Of a stretch of DNA of 64,000 nucleotides, positions 33,653 to 59,297 are shown one piece after another. Below the pieces are notes generated by a model. The model had not been told where the DNA came from. It ran no database searches and saw nothing but the letters and a program-made list of their open reading frames with translations. The translations under genes and the position numbers were made by a program. How positions within the stretch are numbered: the stretch's first letter is position 1; every line of letters begins with the position of its first letter. This DNA is from a virus. The stretch is from positions 62,001 to 126,000 of IMG/VR virus record IMGVR_UViG_3300024336_000005. The stretch is one strand, 5' to 3'.

Positions 33653-34711
33653 ATGAGTGATTATCCAGATGGAACCATTATTGTAGGTCTCCAGGATGGA
33701 GACGAAAGCAAGGGAAAGGTGGCGGCGGCTCTTTGTTCGCTACCGCAAGTGACCCATTGTGTTCGCTATAGTGGTGGACAGAATGCAGGCCATGTTTTCT
33801 ACAAGGATGGCCTACAGGTTGTCACTCATATCATTCCCTCTGGGATTGTATATGGGAAGGTCTCGGTGATTGGTCCTGGCTGCGCCTTCTCTGAGAAGGG
33901 CTTCTGGGCTGAGCTAGAAGACATTTGTGATGCACTGGGGGAGACCATGTTGAATCTCTCTCGCTTGATCAAGATCTCCCCTGCTGCTCATATCGTCCAG
34001 GACAAGCACATCGTTTTGGATGAGGCGACAGACAAGATTGGATCTACCAAGAGAGGGATCGCCCCAGTCTATGCCGATAAGGCTATGAGGACGGGCATCC
34101 GAGCCGAGAGCATTCCAAGCCTAAAGCCTTTCTTGTGGGATACGACTAAGCTCAATGACCCAAAGAATGTCATCGTATTTGAAGGGGCTCAAGGCTTTGG
34201 CCTTGATCCTGATGTAGGAGATTATCCCTATATCACCAGCTCCTCCTCTCTCCCTGGTGCGATCAACAATGTTGGTGTGCCCATCTGGGCAATCAATAAG
34301 ATTGTTGGAGTTGCAAAGCTCTATGCGACCTATGTTGGGACCAAGGAATTCGAGCCAGATCTAGAGATTTTCTCAAAGCTTCGTGAGCTCGGAGGGGAGT
34401 ATGGCTCGACCACAGGCCGTCCTCGACAGTGCAACTGGTTGAATCTTGATACTCTCATCACTGCTATTCGAACCTGTGGTTGTACTACGGTCGTCTTCAG
34501 CAAGTGCGACATCATTGAACAGCTTGGCGTTTTCAAGTTGATTGATGGTGGTACAGTTCGAGAGTTCGGGAATATGGCTGGCATGATTGCTCACATTAAG
34601 CGAGAGCTTAAGGAGGAGGCACCAAGTACAAGTCTAATCTTTAGTGGCAGTCAATACACAGTTGAAGATGACTATGGCCATCTTGCTGAAGAGCCGATGG
34701 GAGAGATTTGA
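33653..34711 (+). CDS. Adenylosuccinate synthetase homologue (PurA/PurZ family, 352 aa)
   Basis: GLQDGDESKGK (P-loop region with the Asp that PurA uses as catalytic base), SGGQNAGH, HIIPSG, STKRGIAPVYADK, VFEGAQG and GSTTGRPR follow the family order. The length (352 aa) is shorter than bacterial PurA (about 430) and like viral/archaeal forms. PurA joins aspartate to IMP; viral PurZ acts on dGMP to make 2-aminoadenine DNA, usually with the Asp replaced. Here Asp is kept but a Ser follows Glu. Which reaction it catalyses is unresolved. Confidence 0.85.
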   Translation: MSDYPDGTIIVGLQDGDESKGKVAAALCSLPQVTHCVRYSGGQNAGHVFYKDGLQVVTHIIPSGIVYGKVSVIGPGCAFSEKGFWAELEDICDALGETMLNLSRLIKISPAAHIVQDKHIVLDEATDKIGSTKRGIAPVYADKAMRTGIRAESIPSLKPFLWDTTKLNDPKNVIVFEGAQGFGLDPDVGDYPYITSSSSLPGAINNVGVPIWAINKIVGVAKLYATYVGTKEFEPDLEIFSKLRELGGEYGSTTGRPRQCNWLNLDTLITAIRTCGCTTVVFSKCDIIEQLGVFKLIDGGTVREFGNMAGMIAHIKRELKEEAPSTSLIFSGSQYTVEDDYGHLAEEPMGEI

Positions 34712-34784: not shown

Positions 34785-36146
34785 ATGTACCAAGCAATTG
34801 TTGCCAACATTCACACCCGTCCACATCCGGGAGCTGATCGAATTCAGCTAGGAACTGTATGTGGCCATCAGGTTGTATGCGGGCTTGACATTGCTGATGG
34901 TACTCTCGGTGTGTTCTTTCCTTGCGATGGCCAGCTAAGTCATGACTTCTGTGTGGCCAATGATGAGTACCCTCGGCTTGATGAACAGGGGAAGAAGGTC
35001 GGTGGCGGATTCATCAATCCTAAGAACCGTCGCGTAAAGGCACAAAGCTTTCGTGGTGAAAAGTCGGATGGCTACTGGGTTCCAATGGATAAGCTCATTA
35101 AGTGGGCAAATCATGTTTGGCGCGAGGATGACAAGGGAGACCATGTCCTCTTGTCCAACCGTGTGCAGAGCCTTGTAGAAGGTGACACCTTTGATTCCGT
35201 TGGCGATGTGCCTTTGTGTAACAAGTATGTAACTGAGAAGACCCTTAAGGCTCTTCAGAATCAGGCCAAGCAGGCTCGCAAGACTCATACTCAGTTCGCT
35301 CAGCATATTGATACCAAGCAGTTCCGATACAACATTGGAAACATCCCGGAGGGTTCCATTGTATGGATATCTGAAAAGCTTCACGGTACTAGCGGTCGCT
35401 ATGGGTACGTTCAAGCTCTTCGTGAGCTCGGTGGCCGTTTTAATGCTTTTGTTCGCAGGGCTTTTGATTGGTGCGCTGATAAGCTTGGTCTTGATGTAAG
35501 CCCTAAGTATGAACATGTTATGGGCTCACGAAGGGTTGAGCTCTCTGCTCAGTCAGAAGGGTTTTACGGCTCGATAGATTTCCGTGCAAATGTAGCAAAC
35601 AAGTTGAAGGGAAATCTCCTCAAGGGTGAGTGCATTTATGGAGAGCTAGTGGGTTGGACTGGTCCTGATTCTTTGATCATGGGCCGCCACTCAACCAAGA
35701 AGCTCGGCAAGGAGCTTCGCAAGCAGTACGGAGAAGAGGTCACCTATACTTATGGACAGCCAAACGGTTGTTCTGAGTTCTTCGTTTATCGAATCACTCG
35801 TGTTGGCCCAGATGGTCAGACGATTGAGCTCGGTGAGCGTGAGATGCGGGCAAGGGCGAGGGTCCTCGGCTTCAAGACTCCAGAGCTCTTTGCGGGGCCG
35901 ATGGTAGTTCACGACTATGCTGATGATAAGTGGGTCGATGGTGGCAAGACGCTCATGCAGGTCGTGGAAGCCTACCTAAATGGACCATCGATTGAAGACT
36001 CACGACATCCTCGAGAGGGCGTCGTGATTAGGGTTGACAGGCCTGACGGGACTACCATCTGGCTCAAGGACAAGAACCATCCGTTCAAGGTAATGGAGGG
36101 TATCGCTAAGGATTCCGGCGAAGCAGACATGGAAGAAAGCTCATGA
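34785..36146 (+). CDS. Rnl5-like RNA ligase (453 aa)
   Basis: The N-terminal OB-like domain (1-150: GADRIQLGTV, VFFPCDGQLS) is followed by the nucleotidyltransferase core: motif I EKLHGTS with adenylated Lys198, motif IV EGVVIR near residue 405 and motif V WLKDKNHPFK near 425. The OB-then-ligase order matches the Deinococcus DraRnl/Rnl5 group, which seals RNA 3'-OH/5'-PO4 ends in nicked duplexes. With the PNK-like and 2H-like proteins it could form an RNA repair or tRNA-splicing pathway. Confidence 0.85.
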   Translation: MYQAIVANIHTRPHPGADRIQLGTVCGHQVVCGLDIADGTLGVFFPCDGQLSHDFCVANDEYPRLDEQGKKVGGGFINPKNRRVKAQSFRGEKSDGYWVPMDKLIKWANHVWREDDKGDHVLLSNRVQSLVEGDTFDSVGDVPLCNKYVTEKTLKALQNQAKQARKTHTQFAQHIDTKQFRYNIGNIPEGSIVWISEKLHGTSGRYGYVQALRELGGRFNAFVRRAFDWCADKLGLDVSPKYEHVMGSRRVELSAQSEGFYGSIDFRANVANKLKGNLLKGECIYGELVGWTGPDSLIMGRHSTKKLGKELRKQYGEEVTYTYGQPNGCSEFFVYRITRVGPDGQTIELGEREMRARARVLGFKTPELFAGPMVVHDYADDKWVDGGKTLMQVVEAYLNGPSIEDSRHPREGVVIRVDRPDGTTIWLKDKNHPFKVMEGIAKDSGEADMEESS

Positions 36147-40772: not shown

Positions 40773-42416
40773 ATGAACTACGGTAAGACTGTTAGCAACG
40801 CTATCAACAATGGTCCAGTTTCTCAGCCTATCATCGGTAGGCCCGAGATGGTAAAGAACAGCACTGAGGGCTTTGTCTTCAACACCACTTCTGAGGCAGC
40901 GCTTGAGCGCTTCCTCATTCTTGGCACTGAAGGCGGCACTTACTATGCCAGCGAGAGCCGAGCTACAGTTGATGCGGCAAAGAATGTCATCGAGATGGCT
41001 GTTGCTGGCAACGTAGATGTAGTCAGTACCATCATCAAGGTCGCTACTGCTCGTCCCTCTCGTGCGCCAAAGATGGAGCCTTCCTTGTTTGCTCTTGCAG
41101 TTTGTACCGCAAAGGGCACCCCCGAGGTAAAAGCTAAGGCGCTCAGCGCGCTGAGCGCGGTTTGCCGTATCCCCACTCATCTGTTTACCTTTCTTCAGGC
41201 CCACAAGGATCTGGGAGGCAAGACCGGTGGGCGCAGCTTCCAGCGAGCCCTACAGAATTGGTATCTTGAGAAGGATCCCTCTAAGCTGGCTTATCAGGTT
41301 GTGAAGTATCAGGGGAGGAATGGCTGGACTCACCGTGATGTTCTTCGGCTTGCCCGCCCTAAGGCTCAGACCCCTGAGCAGAACTCTATTTTGAGTTGGG
41401 CTGTGAATGGTTCGCTGCCTCTGGCAGTAAGTTCTGAAGCGGGTGCTTATCTTGTGGCGGCGAATGAGCTGCTGCGAGGGGAGCCGACGAAGCAGCGTGC
41501 AATCAACTTGATTGAGTCTCATGGGTTCACCCATGAGATGGTTCCGACTAAGCTTCAGAAGGACCCTGATATCTGGGCAGCTTTGCTTCCCCGCATGCCT
41601 ATCAATGCAATGGTTCGCAACCTTGGTCGGATGACTGCCAATGGTCTGATTGTTCCATTCAGTGCCACAACTCAGAGCGTGGTGGAGAAGCTTGAGAATG
41701 TGGATGCCCTTCGCAAGAGCCGCATCCATCCGCTCAACGTTTACGTGGCCTTGCGTACCTATCAGCAGGGCAAGGGCACTCGAGGTTCGTTGACTTGGCG
41801 TCCTGATGCTCAGATCTTGAGCGCACTAGAAGGAGCATTCTACAATGCTTTCGGGAATGTAGAACCGACTGGTAAGCGCTTCATGGTGGGCCTGGATGTA
41901 AGCGGCAGCATGGGTGGATTCTATGGCTACGGCTATAACAGTACTGTGAACCAGACTGGCCTTATGGGGATTCCTGGGTTTACGCCTTATGAGGCAGAAA
42001 CCCTTATGTCCCTTTTGGTTGCAAAGACTGAGAAGCAGACCTTCTTTGGTGGGTTTTCAGACAACTTCACTCCCCTTGCTATCAACTCCCGTGATAACAT
42101 GAGCTCGGCTCTTCAGAAGATCCGATCACTCCGCATGGGTTCCACTAGGATTGCTGCTCCGATGGAGTATGCCACCAAGAACAGGATTCCGGTGGATTGC
42201 TTCCAGATCTACACCGACAATGAAGTGAACATGGGCGGACATCCTTGTCAGACCCTTGAGAAGTATCGTCAGGCTACTGGCATCAATGCGGCCATGGTCG
42301 TATGCGCTATGACCTCTACGAATTTCACTGTGGCCGACCCGAAGGATCCGAAGCAGCTTGATGTTGTTGGATTTGACACGGCAGTGCCAGCTTTGATTCG
42401 ACAGCTTTTGGTGTAA
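40773..42416 (+). CDS. Ro60/Rsr RNA-binding protein, TROVE + vWFA (547 aa)
   Basis: The N-terminal two thirds is an all-helical TROVE-type domain; the C-terminal third is a von Willebrand A domain with MIDAS D375-x-S-x-S (DVSGSMG) and a later YTDNE. Ro60 proteins form a ring that holds misfolded RNA ends in its hole and Y RNA on its rim. In Deinococcus, Rsr helps 23S rRNA maturation and forms a Y-RNA/PNPase degradation machine. Phage Ro homologues have been described. A 23S-like RNA segment lies about 500 bp downstream. Confidence 0.88.
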   Translation: MNYGKTVSNAINNGPVSQPIIGRPEMVKNSTEGFVFNTTSEAALERFLILGTEGGTYYASESRATVDAAKNVIEMAVAGNVDVVSTIIKVATARPSRAPKMEPSLFALAVCTAKGTPEVKAKALSALSAVCRIPTHLFTFLQAHKDLGGKTGGRSFQRALQNWYLEKDPSKLAYQVVKYQGRNGWTHRDVLRLARPKAQTPEQNSILSWAVNGSLPLAVSSEAGAYLVAANELLRGEPTKQRAINLIESHGFTHEMVPTKLQKDPDIWAALLPRMPINAMVRNLGRMTANGLIVPFSATTQSVVEKLENVDALRKSRIHPLNVYVALRTYQQGKGTRGSLTWRPDAQILSALEGAFYNAFGNVEPTGKRFMVGLDVSGSMGGFYGYGYNSTVNQTGLMGIPGFTPYEAETLMSLLVAKTEKQTFFGGFSDNFTPLAINSRDNMSSALQKIRSLRMGSTRIAAPMEYATKNRIPVDCFQIYTDNEVNMGGHPCQTLEKYRQATGINAAMVVCAMTSTNFTVADPKDPKQLDVVGFDTAVPALIRQLLV

Positions 42417-49132: not shown

Positions 49133-49250
49133 TTGAACTGAAGGATATTGGTTATCTTTTCTGAACAAAAACGTGCTGGGTTCGATTCCCAGGGGTTCCA
49201 TAAGGGGCCCGCAGGCGCCTAGTAAACTTCCGATTCCACCCCTTGTTCAA
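49133..49250 (+). ncRNA. GAAC/GUUC element, copy 5 (carries permuted tRNA)
   Basis: TTGAAC (49133-49138) pairs with GTTCAA (49245-49250); then TGAA, stem GGATATTGG with CCGATTCC, and TTATC. Starts 2 nt after tRNA-Lys. The interior is the permuted tRNA-like unit below. Confidence 0.72.
49176..49230 (+). tRNA. Circularly permuted tRNA-like unit
   Basis: T arm CTGGG-TTCGATT-CCCAG (49176-49192), acceptor strand GGGTTCC (49193-49199), A73, then only TAA, then GGGGCCC (49204-49210) which pairs with GGGTTCC (G-U pairs), then a short D-arm-like segment. Nothing resembling a separate anticodon arm remains; the element's own stems may take its place. Confidence 0.6.
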
Positions 49251-49451
49251 TTCATTCTAAAAGTTCCTATACAAATCTCAAAAAAGTCAGAAAAATATTT
49301 TGGGCTTTTGAAAAGATCTTTTCACCGTTCGAAAGGTGAAAAGGAACGCCTTAATCTAGCTACAACGAGTGGTTGTTTCAGTTCATCCCATCTCAATAGT
49401 TAGTTGCTGTCTCTAAATCAACTGAATAAAAGCAGCAAAGATTAAGGTCAT
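49251..49451 (+). other. Non-coding gap with perfect 8-bp hairpin
   Basis: TTTTCACC (49319-49326) pairs with GGTGAAAA (49335-49342). Preceding AT-rich DNA (AAAAAGTCAGAAAAATATTTTGGG, about 49281-49304) resembles sequence at 60460-60488. Confidence 0.4.
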
Positions 49452-52638: not shown

Positions 52639-53051
52639 AGCTGAGAGGAAAGCCCCATATTCTAGGAAGCCTTGACAGTTCGGAGAGACGAACGCTTTAT
52701 CTTATCCAGGAGGTGGGCTTAGAAGCAGCCATCCTTTAAAGAGTGGGCATAGATGAAGCTTAACCGATTGATCTTATCTAATCATGACACGGATAGGAGA
52801 AGCTTAAGTTAGCACCTCTCAATAAATTCGAATTGGACCCAGGTTGGCTTCCTGGTTGGCCTTTACGAGAGAGTCTTGTAAGAAAGCGGGAAGAGACTTA
52901 GTCAGTCTTATAAAGAGAGCGAAACCGAACGCAACTCTTTGTTCTATTTTAGAACTGGTGTGAATCCTATGACGGGATGTATTTGGTTAACAAACGAGAG
53001 AATTGACTCTGCCCTCCTTTTAGCGTAATAGCACACTGGATAGATAACTTT
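52639..53051 (+). ncRNA. 23S GTPase-centre-like RNA with about 275-nt insertion
   Basis: 52704-52744 (CCAGGAGGTGGGCTTAGAAG, then CAGCCATCCTTTAAAGA) closely matches the first part of the 58-nt L11-binding domain of 23S rRNA (E. coli about 1052-1093). 53022-53040 (AGCGTAATAGCACACTGGA) matches its 3' part. TATCCAG (52703-52709) pairs with CTGGATA (53036-53042), rebuilding helix 42. Between them are structured sequences including CTTTGTTCT-ATTT-AGAACTG, similar to an inside-out GAAC/GUUC element. No gene seen. Confidence 0.7.
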
Positions 53052-53347: not shown

Positions 53348-53641
53348 ATGAGATATGTTTTGATGTGCCTTCTCTTCATGGGATGCACTACAGTGACCTT
53401 CCAGTTGGTGCCCACTCCTGCTCCTACTCTTCCTCCCTCGGCTCAGATGTTGATGGAGGATTGCGATGGCGTTACAGCAGATGATATTTATACACTCATT
53501 GAAGTCGAGCCCTGCAAAGGGCTCGTTCAGATGAGAGAACAAAGACTGTTAGATGCAGAGAGAATTTGTGAAGAATACTGCACTGAAAAAGATTGGTGCC
53601 ATGATCCAGATGAACGATTCGATTACGAAAGGGTAGAATAA
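53348..53641 (+). CDS. Lipoprotein (97 aa)
   Basis: Signal peptide with lipobox LFMGC (Cys13), Pro-rich linker, then an acidic domain with several Cys. TAATG overlap with the next gene. Confidence 0.75.
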   Translation: MRYVLMCLLFMGCTTVTFQLVPTPAPTLPPSAQMLMEDCDGVTADDIYTLIEVEPCKGLVQMREQRLLDAERICEEYCTEKDWCHDPDERFDYERVE

Positions 53642-54369
53642 TGAAGTTGAACCAAGCTCTAGCCATTGAGACTGGCACGAAGACTAACACCAAGAGGAAG
53701 ATGACTGATCTTTACAAGCTGATTCAGAAGGCTTCTGCCTTTAATGGATTCGTAAAGACCTACGAGCCTCGAGCTGAAGATGGGATTGAGTTCCCGTCTG
53801 AGTCACAGGTTGTGCAGACGACCGCAGAGGAGGCTCTGCGGGGCGTCCTTGAGGCATCAGAGGAGCTGGTAAACATCACTGCTACGATTGCTTTCTCTAA
53901 CCTTTCTGCTCTTGCGGATGTGGTTGTTGACGGTGAGGTTGTGGCTAAGGATGTTCCTGCCACTCATCTGATCTACTTGGAGAAGCACCTGGCTGAGCTA
54001 GCGACTGTGGTCGCTGCTCTTCCGACGTTGGATCCAAGCAAGCAGTGGACCAAGAATGAAGCCACTGGATACTACGAGACGAAGCCGACAACGACTACTC
54101 GTACTCAGAAGATCCAGGAGGCTCTCGTTCTGTACCCTGCAACTCCTGAGCATCCAGCTCAGACTCAGCTCATCAGCAAGGATGTAGTGATCGGTGACTG
54201 GACTGTGATTTCACAGTCAGGTGCTATCCCTGCTCCTGAGAAGAAGAGGCTACAGAAGAGGGTTCAGTCCCTCCTAGAGGCCACGAAGATTGCTCGCGCC
54301 AAGGCGAACCTGGCTAACGCACCGCGTCAGGACCTGGGCACTGCGGTAAGCAACTTCCTTCTTGCATAA
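53641..54369 (+). CDS. Unknown protein (242 aa)
   Basis: Coupled start. Soluble alpha/beta protein; a long central helix and a basic C-terminal helical part. G+C-richer codon use than its neighbours. It looks like a conserved phage protein, but I cannot name the family with certainty. Confidence 0.8.
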   Translation: MKLNQALAIETGTKTNTKRKMTDLYKLIQKASAFNGFVKTYEPRAEDGIEFPSESQVVQTTAEEALRGVLEASEELVNITATIAFSNLSALADVVVDGEVVAKDVPATHLIYLEKHLAELATVVAALPTLDPSKQWTKNEATGYYETKPTTTTRTQKIQEALVLYPATPEHPAQTQLISKDVVIGDWTVISQSGAIPAPEKKRLQKRVQSLLEATKIARAKANLANAPRQDLGTAVSNFLLA

Positions 54370-54878
54370 GAATTCCGAGAGGACAATCTAAGATTTAATC
54401 TTAGACTAAACGTCACTGACATCTAGGTTCGAATCCTAGGCCCGCAACCATGTGCCTGCGCGATGCATCATAAGCAGCTCTTCAATGGGGGAGTGGTGGG
54501 TGAAAGTCCCATGGCACAACATAATGCGGGTTGGCGAAACTGGTATACGCGGGGACTTGTCCCTGTCAGACATGACACTTAAGCTTAAGCTATTCCTCTA
54601 CGCTTAGCTTGCTGAATCAATATCTAAATCAACGGATACAATCAAACTATAGGAAGACGAAGGTTGGATTCCTTCCGGGGTGACCATAGATGAACTGTTT
54701 GAGAGGGGTTGATCATGACTTTTCGCTATGCACAGATGGTTCATCTTTAACACCTTGTCGTACAGCTGCAAGTACATCCTTTATAAAGCTCAGAGTGTAT
54801 CGATGCCGTTAGATAATGAGACAGGATAAAATAAAATTGGTCTAGCAGACAGGTTAGTTCTGCTGGACCACCAAGGGC
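54370..54878 (+). other. Non-coding region with permuted tRNA and tRNA pieces
   Basis: No gene. Contains a TCTAAGAT/ATCTTAGA hairpin (about 54388-54406), the permuted tRNA at 54416-54569, an orphan T arm GAAGG-TTGGATT-CCTTC with CCA (about 54659-54686) and a GATGAAC/GTTCATC-closed fold (54692-54748) that may be a diverged GAAC/GUUC element. Confidence 0.5.
54416..54569 (+). tRNA. Circularly permuted tRNA with 74-nt linker
   Basis: T arm CTAGG-TTCGAAT-CCTAG (54423-54439), acceptor strand GCCCGCA (54440-54446), A73 and encoded CCA (54448-54450), then a linker closed by TGTGCC/GGCACA, then TGCGGGT (54525-54531), fully complementary to GCCCGCA, TG and a Leu-like D arm. CTGACA (54416-54421) pairs with TGTCAG (54564-54569), joining leader and trailer where the anticodon stem would be. 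Confidence 0.6.
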
Positions 54879-59164: not shown

Positions 59165-59297
59165 TCTGGTGTCGCTTAATGGTAGAGCAGGCGGCTGTGG
59201 TTTATTGCAAGGGCATTACAAGGGTCTTAACCTTGGTAGGCCTCATAACCGCCCGGGGGAAACTCCATTGTAGGTTCGACTCCTACCACCAGAGCCA
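59165..59297 (+). tRNA. tRNA with 47-nt anticodon-loop insertion (Asn GTT or His GTG)
   Basis: Acceptor TCTGGTG/CACCAGA, G73, CCA, D and T arms canonical. The anticodon stem GGCGG (59190-59194) / CCGCC (59249-59253) is perfect but the loop holds 54 nt with a CAAGG/CCTTG hairpin. Removing 47 nt leaves CTGTTAA (Asn) or CTGTGAA (His), depending on the junction. U1-A72 and G73 favour Asn. Too short for a group I intron. Confidence 0.75.

What the first reader, a model, noticed from the sequence alone, without database searches (positions are those of the whole stretch)
54416..54569. Permuted tRNA with encoded CCA and a folded 74-nt linker
The acceptor strands GCCCGCA and TGCGGGT are 7/7 complementary but in reversed order, separated by a linker closed by TGTGCC/GGCACA. 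Leader CTGACA and trailer TGTCAG pair where the anticodon stem should be.
Basis: seen in the sequence. Interest (0 to 1): 0.8.

Follow-up and report, generated by a model that had tools for sequence, protein, structure and literature searches.

The report
Phage RNA with tandem permuted tRNAs
The odd inside-out tRNA in this phage genome is one of two such modules in a roughly 490-nucleotide structured RNA that sits behind an uncharacterised gene in dozens of unrelated phages, does not look like a working tRNA, and is missing from the RNA catalogue that was searched.

Summary
In detail: T arm, acceptor 3' strand + A-CCA, a folded 74-nt linker, acceptor 5' strand (7/7 paired) and D arm lie in permuted order at 54416-54569. 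It is not a lone permuted tRNA gene. It is the first of two permuted tRNA modules in one RNA (about 54387-54869) directly 3' of a DUF7873 (PF25283) gene. The same arrangement follows DUF7873 in 79 of 88 loci (44 with two modules in tandem), with no hit in 2 Mb of shuffles. Across 62 modules the acceptor stem is 100% paired and all seven pairs show compensatory changes; CCA follows the discriminator in 52 of 114 linkers. Two covarying helices and conserved motifs form a shared core. U33 and BHB motifs are not conserved and no tRNA-splicing endonuclease was found, so decoding tRNAs made by circularisation are unlikely. Best reading: a new phage ncRNA class of tRNA mimics, probably opened at the acceptor ends by RNase P and 3' processing. 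The closest known module is the Ro60-bound YrlA Y RNA; the same phage carries a Ro60 gene and a separate YrlA-like element (47369-47437). No Rfam family and no paper found describes this RNA; its function is untested.

The parts
53641..54369 (+). DUF7873 protein gene (PF25283), 242 aa, directly upstream of the RNA in the related loci
   Evidence: Pfam 6e-82; 293 relatives in viral contigs; AF2 model pLDDT 94.6 without a significant fold match
54387..54405 (+). leader hairpin TCTAAGAT/ATCTTAGA
   Evidence: fold
54416..54421 (+). module 1, 3' strand (CTGACA) of the stem in the anticodon-stem position
   Evidence: sequence; fold
54423..54439 (+). module 1 T arm CTAGG-TTCGAAT-CCTAG
54440..54450 (+). 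module 1 acceptor 3' strand GCCCGCA, discriminator A, encoded CCA
   Evidence: CCA in 52 of 114 related linkers
54451..54524 (+). module 1 linker (74 nt), folded hairpin expected to be removed
   Evidence: fold; related linkers vary in length from 5 to 89 nt; removal is inferred
54525..54531 (+). module 1 acceptor 5' strand TGCGGGT
   Evidence: 7/7 pairing
54532..54551 (+). module 1 positions 8-9 (TG), D arm GCG-AAACTGGTATA-CGC and G26
54552..54563 (+). small hairpin GGGACTTGTCCC between D arm and stem
   Evidence: fold; hairpin-like insertions at the same place read by eye in several loci, e.g. L038, L054
54564..54569 (+). module 1, 5' strand (TGTCAG) of the stem in the anticodon-stem position
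   Evidence: 6/6 with 54416-54421
54584..54608 (+). conserved core stretch CTTAAGCTATTCCTCTACGCTTAGC
   Evidence: matches by eye the conserved X segment AGATTATCGCTC..AGNCTNAGCA of the relatives
54621..54640 (+). core: helix beta strand TATCTAA, motif ATCAACG, helix alpha strand GATACA
   Evidence: 13/13 paired with 54796-54815; 12 of 2000 shuffles reach this; helices covary in 29 loci
54651..54658 (+). module 2, 3' strand AGGA of the anticodon-position stem and variable loop AGAC
   Evidence: AGAC is the commonest module-2 variable loop; fold
54659..54675 (+). module 2 T arm GAAGG-TTGGATT-CCTTC (degenerate loop)
54676..54686 (+). module 2 acceptor 3' strand CGGGGTG, discriminator A, encoded CCA
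54687..54750 (+). module 2 linker, long folded hairpin
   Evidence: fold; removal is inferred
54751..54757 (+). module 2 acceptor 5' strand CACCTTG (7/7 including two G-U)
   Evidence: 26 of 2000 shuffles give such a hit
54760..54775 (+). module 2 D arm GTAC-AGCTGCAA-GTAC (loop lacks GG)
54777..54780 (+). module 2, 5' strand TCCT of the anticodon-position stem
   Evidence: pairs with AGGA 54651-54654 in the fold
54796..54815 (+). core: helix alpha strand TGTATC, GATGCCG (consensus TTAAAYGNCG), helix beta strand TTAGATA
54839..54869 (+). 3'-terminal hairpin GGTCTAGCAG..CTGCTGGACC
   Evidence: fold

Best explanation
54387-54869 encodes one member of a widespread class of phage structured noncoding RNA placed directly 3' of a DUF7873 gene. 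It holds two tandem, circularly permuted tRNA-like modules around a conserved core. SHOWN computationally: the permuted order, the covarying acceptor, T and D stems, the frequent encoded CCA, the core helices, and the link to DUF7873. INFERRED: the RNA is transcribed with or just after DUF7873; RNase P and 3' processing cut the linkers, opening one or both modules to 5'-phosphate and 3'-CCA ends, so the mature RNA is a two- or three-piece molecule held together by its tRNA-like folds; the tRNA-like heads engage tRNA-handling host machinery (charging, EF-Tu, ribosome or RNases) as mimics while the core, and possibly DUF7873, does the specific job. It is not a decoding tRNA.
For: 79 of 88 DUF7873 loci carry permuted modules downstream; 114 strict hits in 75 of 85 loci against 0 in 2.03 Mb of shuffles, 0 on the reverse strand and 1 in 302 kb upstream. 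Acceptor helix 100% paired in 62 modules with both-side changes at all 7 pairs; covariation score 0.79 against 0.19 in shuffles. CCA exactly after the discriminator in 52 of 114. Helices alpha and beta covary: 84% paired against 42% (max 58%) and 58% (max 69%) with mismatched partners. Unconstrained fold of the window RNA shows both modules. The gap is unannotated in the complete phage genomes looked at. No Rfam hit at gathering score. U33 not conserved, no conserved BHB, no splicing endonuclease.
Against: No expression, processing, charging or binding data. About half of the linkers lack an encoded CCA, which could mean closed acceptor ends, or CCA added later. The window's module 2 is degenerate (T loop TTGGATT, no GG in the D loop). 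DUF7873 has no known RNA-binding fold, and one DUF7873 gene in a Microscillaceae MAG (L112) has no such RNA behind it, so a physical partnership is unproven.
Confidence: 0.62

Rival explanations
1. True circularly permuted tRNA genes, as in red and green algae and Thermofilum: leader and trailer are cut and joined in the anticodon region to a circle, then the linker is removed, giving decoding tRNAs.
For: Same gene order and encoded CCA; linker within the known range (1-74 nt in PMC3978253); the phage has an RNA ligase (PF09414).
Against: U33 not conserved (7/39 and 15/39); no conserved BHB-like junction (0 of 41); no tRNA-splicing endonuclease in six phage records; leader and trailer run into a conserved core; the RNA ligase family was found in only 8 of 14 records.
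Confidence: 0.1
2. A Ro60-bound Y RNA (YrlA type), whose tRNA-like domain is naturally permuted.
For: Same T arm-acceptor-D arm order as the Rfam YrlA model (T arm at model 31-47, D arm 63-81); this phage encodes a Ro60 protein; Ro60 phages carry permuted modules near Ro60.
Against: Linked to DUF7873, not Ro60: TROVE absent from 22 of 30 DUF7873 records including complete phages, DUF7873 absent from 9 of 9 Ro60 phages; two modules, CCA and long linkers; all hits below the YrlA gathering score of 69 bits. The phage has a better YrlA candidate at 47369-47437.
Confidence: 0.12
3. A regulatory or stability element in the 3' UTR of DUF7873 mRNA that uses tRNA-like modules as RNase P sites.
For: Placed directly 3' of DUF7873; tRNA-like modules are known RNase P substrates (general knowledge).
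Against: A 3'-UTR element does not need two tRNA-grade modules with CCA and a conserved core.
Confidence: 0.12
4. Debris of rearranged tRNA genes in a tRNA-rich phage.
For: The genome has many tRNAs and orphan T arms.
Against: Conserved two-module layout and covariation across dozens of phages.
Confidence: 0.02

Closest known systems
YrlA / bacterial Y RNA tRNA-like domain (Rfam RF02553)
   Same: tRNA-like domain in the order T arm, acceptor, D arm; 5' and 3' strands pair where the anticodon stem would be; also found in phages
   Different: one module closed by a short loop, bound to Ro60, no CCA end; here two tandem modules with CCA and linkers, a conserved core, linked to DUF7873 and found without Ro60; below the gathering score
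Circularly permuted tRNA genes (algae, Thermofilum pendens)
   Same: 3' half before 5' half, linker joining the acceptor ends, sometimes encoded CCA
   Different: BHB junctions and splicing endonuclease give decoding tRNAs; here U33, BHB and endonuclease are not found
Two-piece (permuted) tmRNA
   Same: permuted gene order with the acceptor piece first and a processed linker (general knowledge; PMC10085705)
   Different: no match to the tmRNA family here, intact D arm, two modules; this phage has a separate one-piece tmRNA at 23869-24490
GOLLD and ROOL ornate large RNAs
   Same: large structured phage RNAs of unknown function near tRNA islands (PMC12286853)
   Different: no Rfam match; different architecture; not known for permuted tRNA modules

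Membership tests
Circularly permuted tRNA gene | 3' half precedes 5' half, acceptor strands complementary | tested here: met
Circularly permuted tRNA gene | anticodon loop with U33 after joining | tested here: not met
   T at position 33 in 7/39 (module 1) and 15/39 (module 2)
Circularly permuted tRNA gene | BHB or relaxed BHB at the junction | tested here: not met
   0 of 41 two-module loci; the window alone shows a single 3-nt bulge beside a 4-bp helix
Circularly permuted tRNA gene | splicing endonuclease available | tested here: not met
   PF01974 absent from six phage records; hosts not tested
YrlA Y RNA | permuted tRNA-like domain | tested here: met
YrlA Y RNA | reaches the Rfam gathering score (69 bits) | tested here: not met
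   module scores of about 19-38 bits in DUF7873 records; phage YrlA candidates near Ro60 also miss it
YrlA Y RNA | encoded with Ro60 | tested here: not met
   22 of 30 DUF7873 records without TROVE; the window's own genome does have Ro60
YrlA Y RNA | binds Ro60 | not testable with these tools
   needs a pull-down
tmRNA | matches RF00023 | tested here: not met
   no match at 54387-54869; the phage tmRNA is at 23869-24490
GOLLD/ROOL | matches an Rfam family | tested here: not met
   no hit
Group I intron (permuted intron-exon) | matches RF00028 around the element | tested here: not met
   no match near the element

The most novel reading that the evidence does not exclude
A double-headed, multi-piece phage RNA: both permuted modules are cut open by RNase P and 3' processing, both CCA ends are aminoacylated with different amino acids (module 1 discriminator mostly A, module 2 mostly T or G), and the core with DUF7873 presents two charged tRNA-like heads to the ribosome or another target during infection.
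Probability: 0.2. Interest if true: 0.97.

Novelty: categorically new. Interest (0 to 1): 0.87.

Why it matters
No permuted tRNA in a phage turned up in the papers searched, and permuted tRNA genes are reviewed there only from algae and one archaeon. Here is a large structured RNA, found behind one uncharacterised gene in phages of actinobacteria, proteobacteria and cyanobacteria, that uses two permuted tRNA folds as building blocks. It gives a function to look for at about 500 unannotated bases in many sequenced phages, offers an RNA partner candidate for DUF7873, and suggests that tRNA mimicry of the YrlA type is wider than Ro60. Its prediction (RNase P opens the modules to CCA ends) can be tested in laboratory phages such as Gordonia phage GodonK or Arthrobacter phage Mimi.

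Tried and rejected
Group I permuted intron-exon idea: no RF00028 match near the element. ARAGORN with introns allowed: nothing here. Weak group II D1-D4 match in the linker (16.7 bits, E 0.34): treated as chance. Y RNA reading: supported for 47369-47437, not for this element. Alpha/beta test on the window: one search stopped with an error and one search had an off-by-one in the beta register and looked non-significant; corrected (13/13, 12 of 2000 shuffles). RNAalifold on the trimmed core segments found no structure, because the pairs run between segments. Covariance model R1 does not score the window module well because of its 74-nt linker. DUF7873 fold searches in PDB and BFVD: no significant match.

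Full report
Observation. The sequence is as described. T arm 54423-54439, acceptor GCCCGCA + A + CCA 54440-54450, a 74-nt linker, acceptor TGCGGGT 54525-54531, D arm 54534-54550, and CTGACA/TGTCAG pairing where an anticodon stem would be. The window is bases 62001-126000 of a 204,008-base IMG/VR virus record, a tRNA-rich phage with a one-piece tmRNA. Neither ARAGORN nor Rfam calls a tRNA at the element. A scan of the genome pieces for T arm, acceptor and D arm in permuted order gave two real candidates, 54428 and 47383 (positions are those of the T loop).

A lead that turned out to be a neighbour. The phage encodes a Ro60/TROVE protein at 40773-42416. Bacterial Y RNAs of the YrlA type carry a tRNA-like domain (PMC8394870), and the Rfam YrlA model has the same permuted order. 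Permuted modules lie near Ro60 in several Ro60 phages. The element at 47369-47437, whose acceptor is closed by GAAA, fits this well; it is the best YrlA match in the genome, although below the gathering score.

The element itself belongs elsewhere. The gene in front of it (53641-54369) is DUF7873. In DUF7873 phages of Gordonia, Arthrobacter, Rhodococcus and Klebsiella a 400-700-base unannotated gap follows the gene, and in these four phages it holds two permuted tRNA modules in tandem. Eighty IMG/VR loci were then fetched. In all, 79 of 88 DUF7873 loci carry permuted modules within 1.2 kb, 44 of them a tandem pair. Controls: 114 strict hits in 101 kb downstream, 0 in 2.03 Mb of dinucleotide shuffles, 0 on the reverse strand, 1 in 302 kb upstream.

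Structure. In 62 aligned modules the acceptor stem is 100% paired and every one of its seven pairs shows compensatory changes; the covariation score is 0.787 against 0.190 in shuffles and at most 0.20 for slid structures. Between and after the modules lie conserved stretches. Helix alpha (after ATCRA, before TTAAAYG) covaries at a fixed register and helix beta (outside them) at the better of two registers. In the window the unconstrained fold gives both modules, each with a folded linker, z -3.8; module 2 is degenerate (T loop TTGGATT, D loop without GG) but keeps 7/7 acceptor pairs and ACCA.

What it does. Encoded CCA directly after the discriminator in 52 of 114 linkers, together with linkers of 5-89 nt, points to acceptor ends that are opened by processing in at least many members; that step is inferred. 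Decoding is unlikely: U33 is not conserved, no BHB-like junction is conserved (0 of 41), and no tRNA-splicing endonuclease was found in six phage records. So the modules look like tRNA mimics set in a larger RNA. Module 1 mostly has discriminator A, module 2 T or G, which leaves room for two different charged ends; this is untested.

Partners. TROVE was not found in 22 of 30 DUF7873 records, including complete phage genomes, and DUF7873 was not found in nine Ro60 phages, so Ro60 is not the general partner. DUF7873 is confidently modelled (pLDDT 94.6) with no significant fold match; a role as RNA partner is a guess from the gene order. A DUF7873 gene in a Bacteroidota MAG had no such RNA.

Known or new. 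No Rfam family matched at gathering score, and nothing convincing at a lax threshold; no paper found mentions DUF7873 or a permuted tRNA in a phage. bioRxiv and many journals are not held, so an unseen description is possible. GOLLD and ROOL are the nearest by setting, YrlA by module, permuted tRNA genes by gene order, and none by defining features. I therefore rate the RNA class as new, while noting that its building block resembles the YrlA domain.

Noticed in passing
window 47322-47493: YrlA-like Y RNA candidate: terminal stem GAACTGAAG/CTTGTTC, variable arm, T arm, GAAA-closed acceptor, D arm; best YrlA match in the genome (21.1 bits, below gathering).
   Followed up: partly
window 44016-44101, 44459-44524, 49135-49251: Three more elements share the GAACTGAAG...TTGTTC terminal stem; candidate small Y RNAs, one with an orphan T arm.
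   Followed up: no
window 40773-42416: Ro60/TROVE protein gene.
   Followed up: yes
window 42910-42975 and 52694-52759: Intergenic stretches resembling 23S rRNA: one holds a GGCCCTAAGGTAGCGA sequence, the other is a weak LSU hit (26.7 bits).
   Followed up: no
window 59165-59294: tRNA with an insertion of about 45 nt in the anticodon loop.
   Followed up: no
window 47743-48660: tRNA-like halves split around a reverse-strand ORF and a tRNA-Gln gene.
   Followed up: no
window 34785-36146, 33653-34711: RNA ligase (PF09414) and adenylosuccinate synthetase genes.
   Followed up: partly
L011:13503-14357 and L013:509-2149: Reverse transcriptase gene, and an intein-like LAGLIDADG insertion beside a DNA polymerase III alpha domain.
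   Followed up: no
L112: DUF7873 gene in a Microscillaceae MAG without the RNA behind it.
   Followed up: partly
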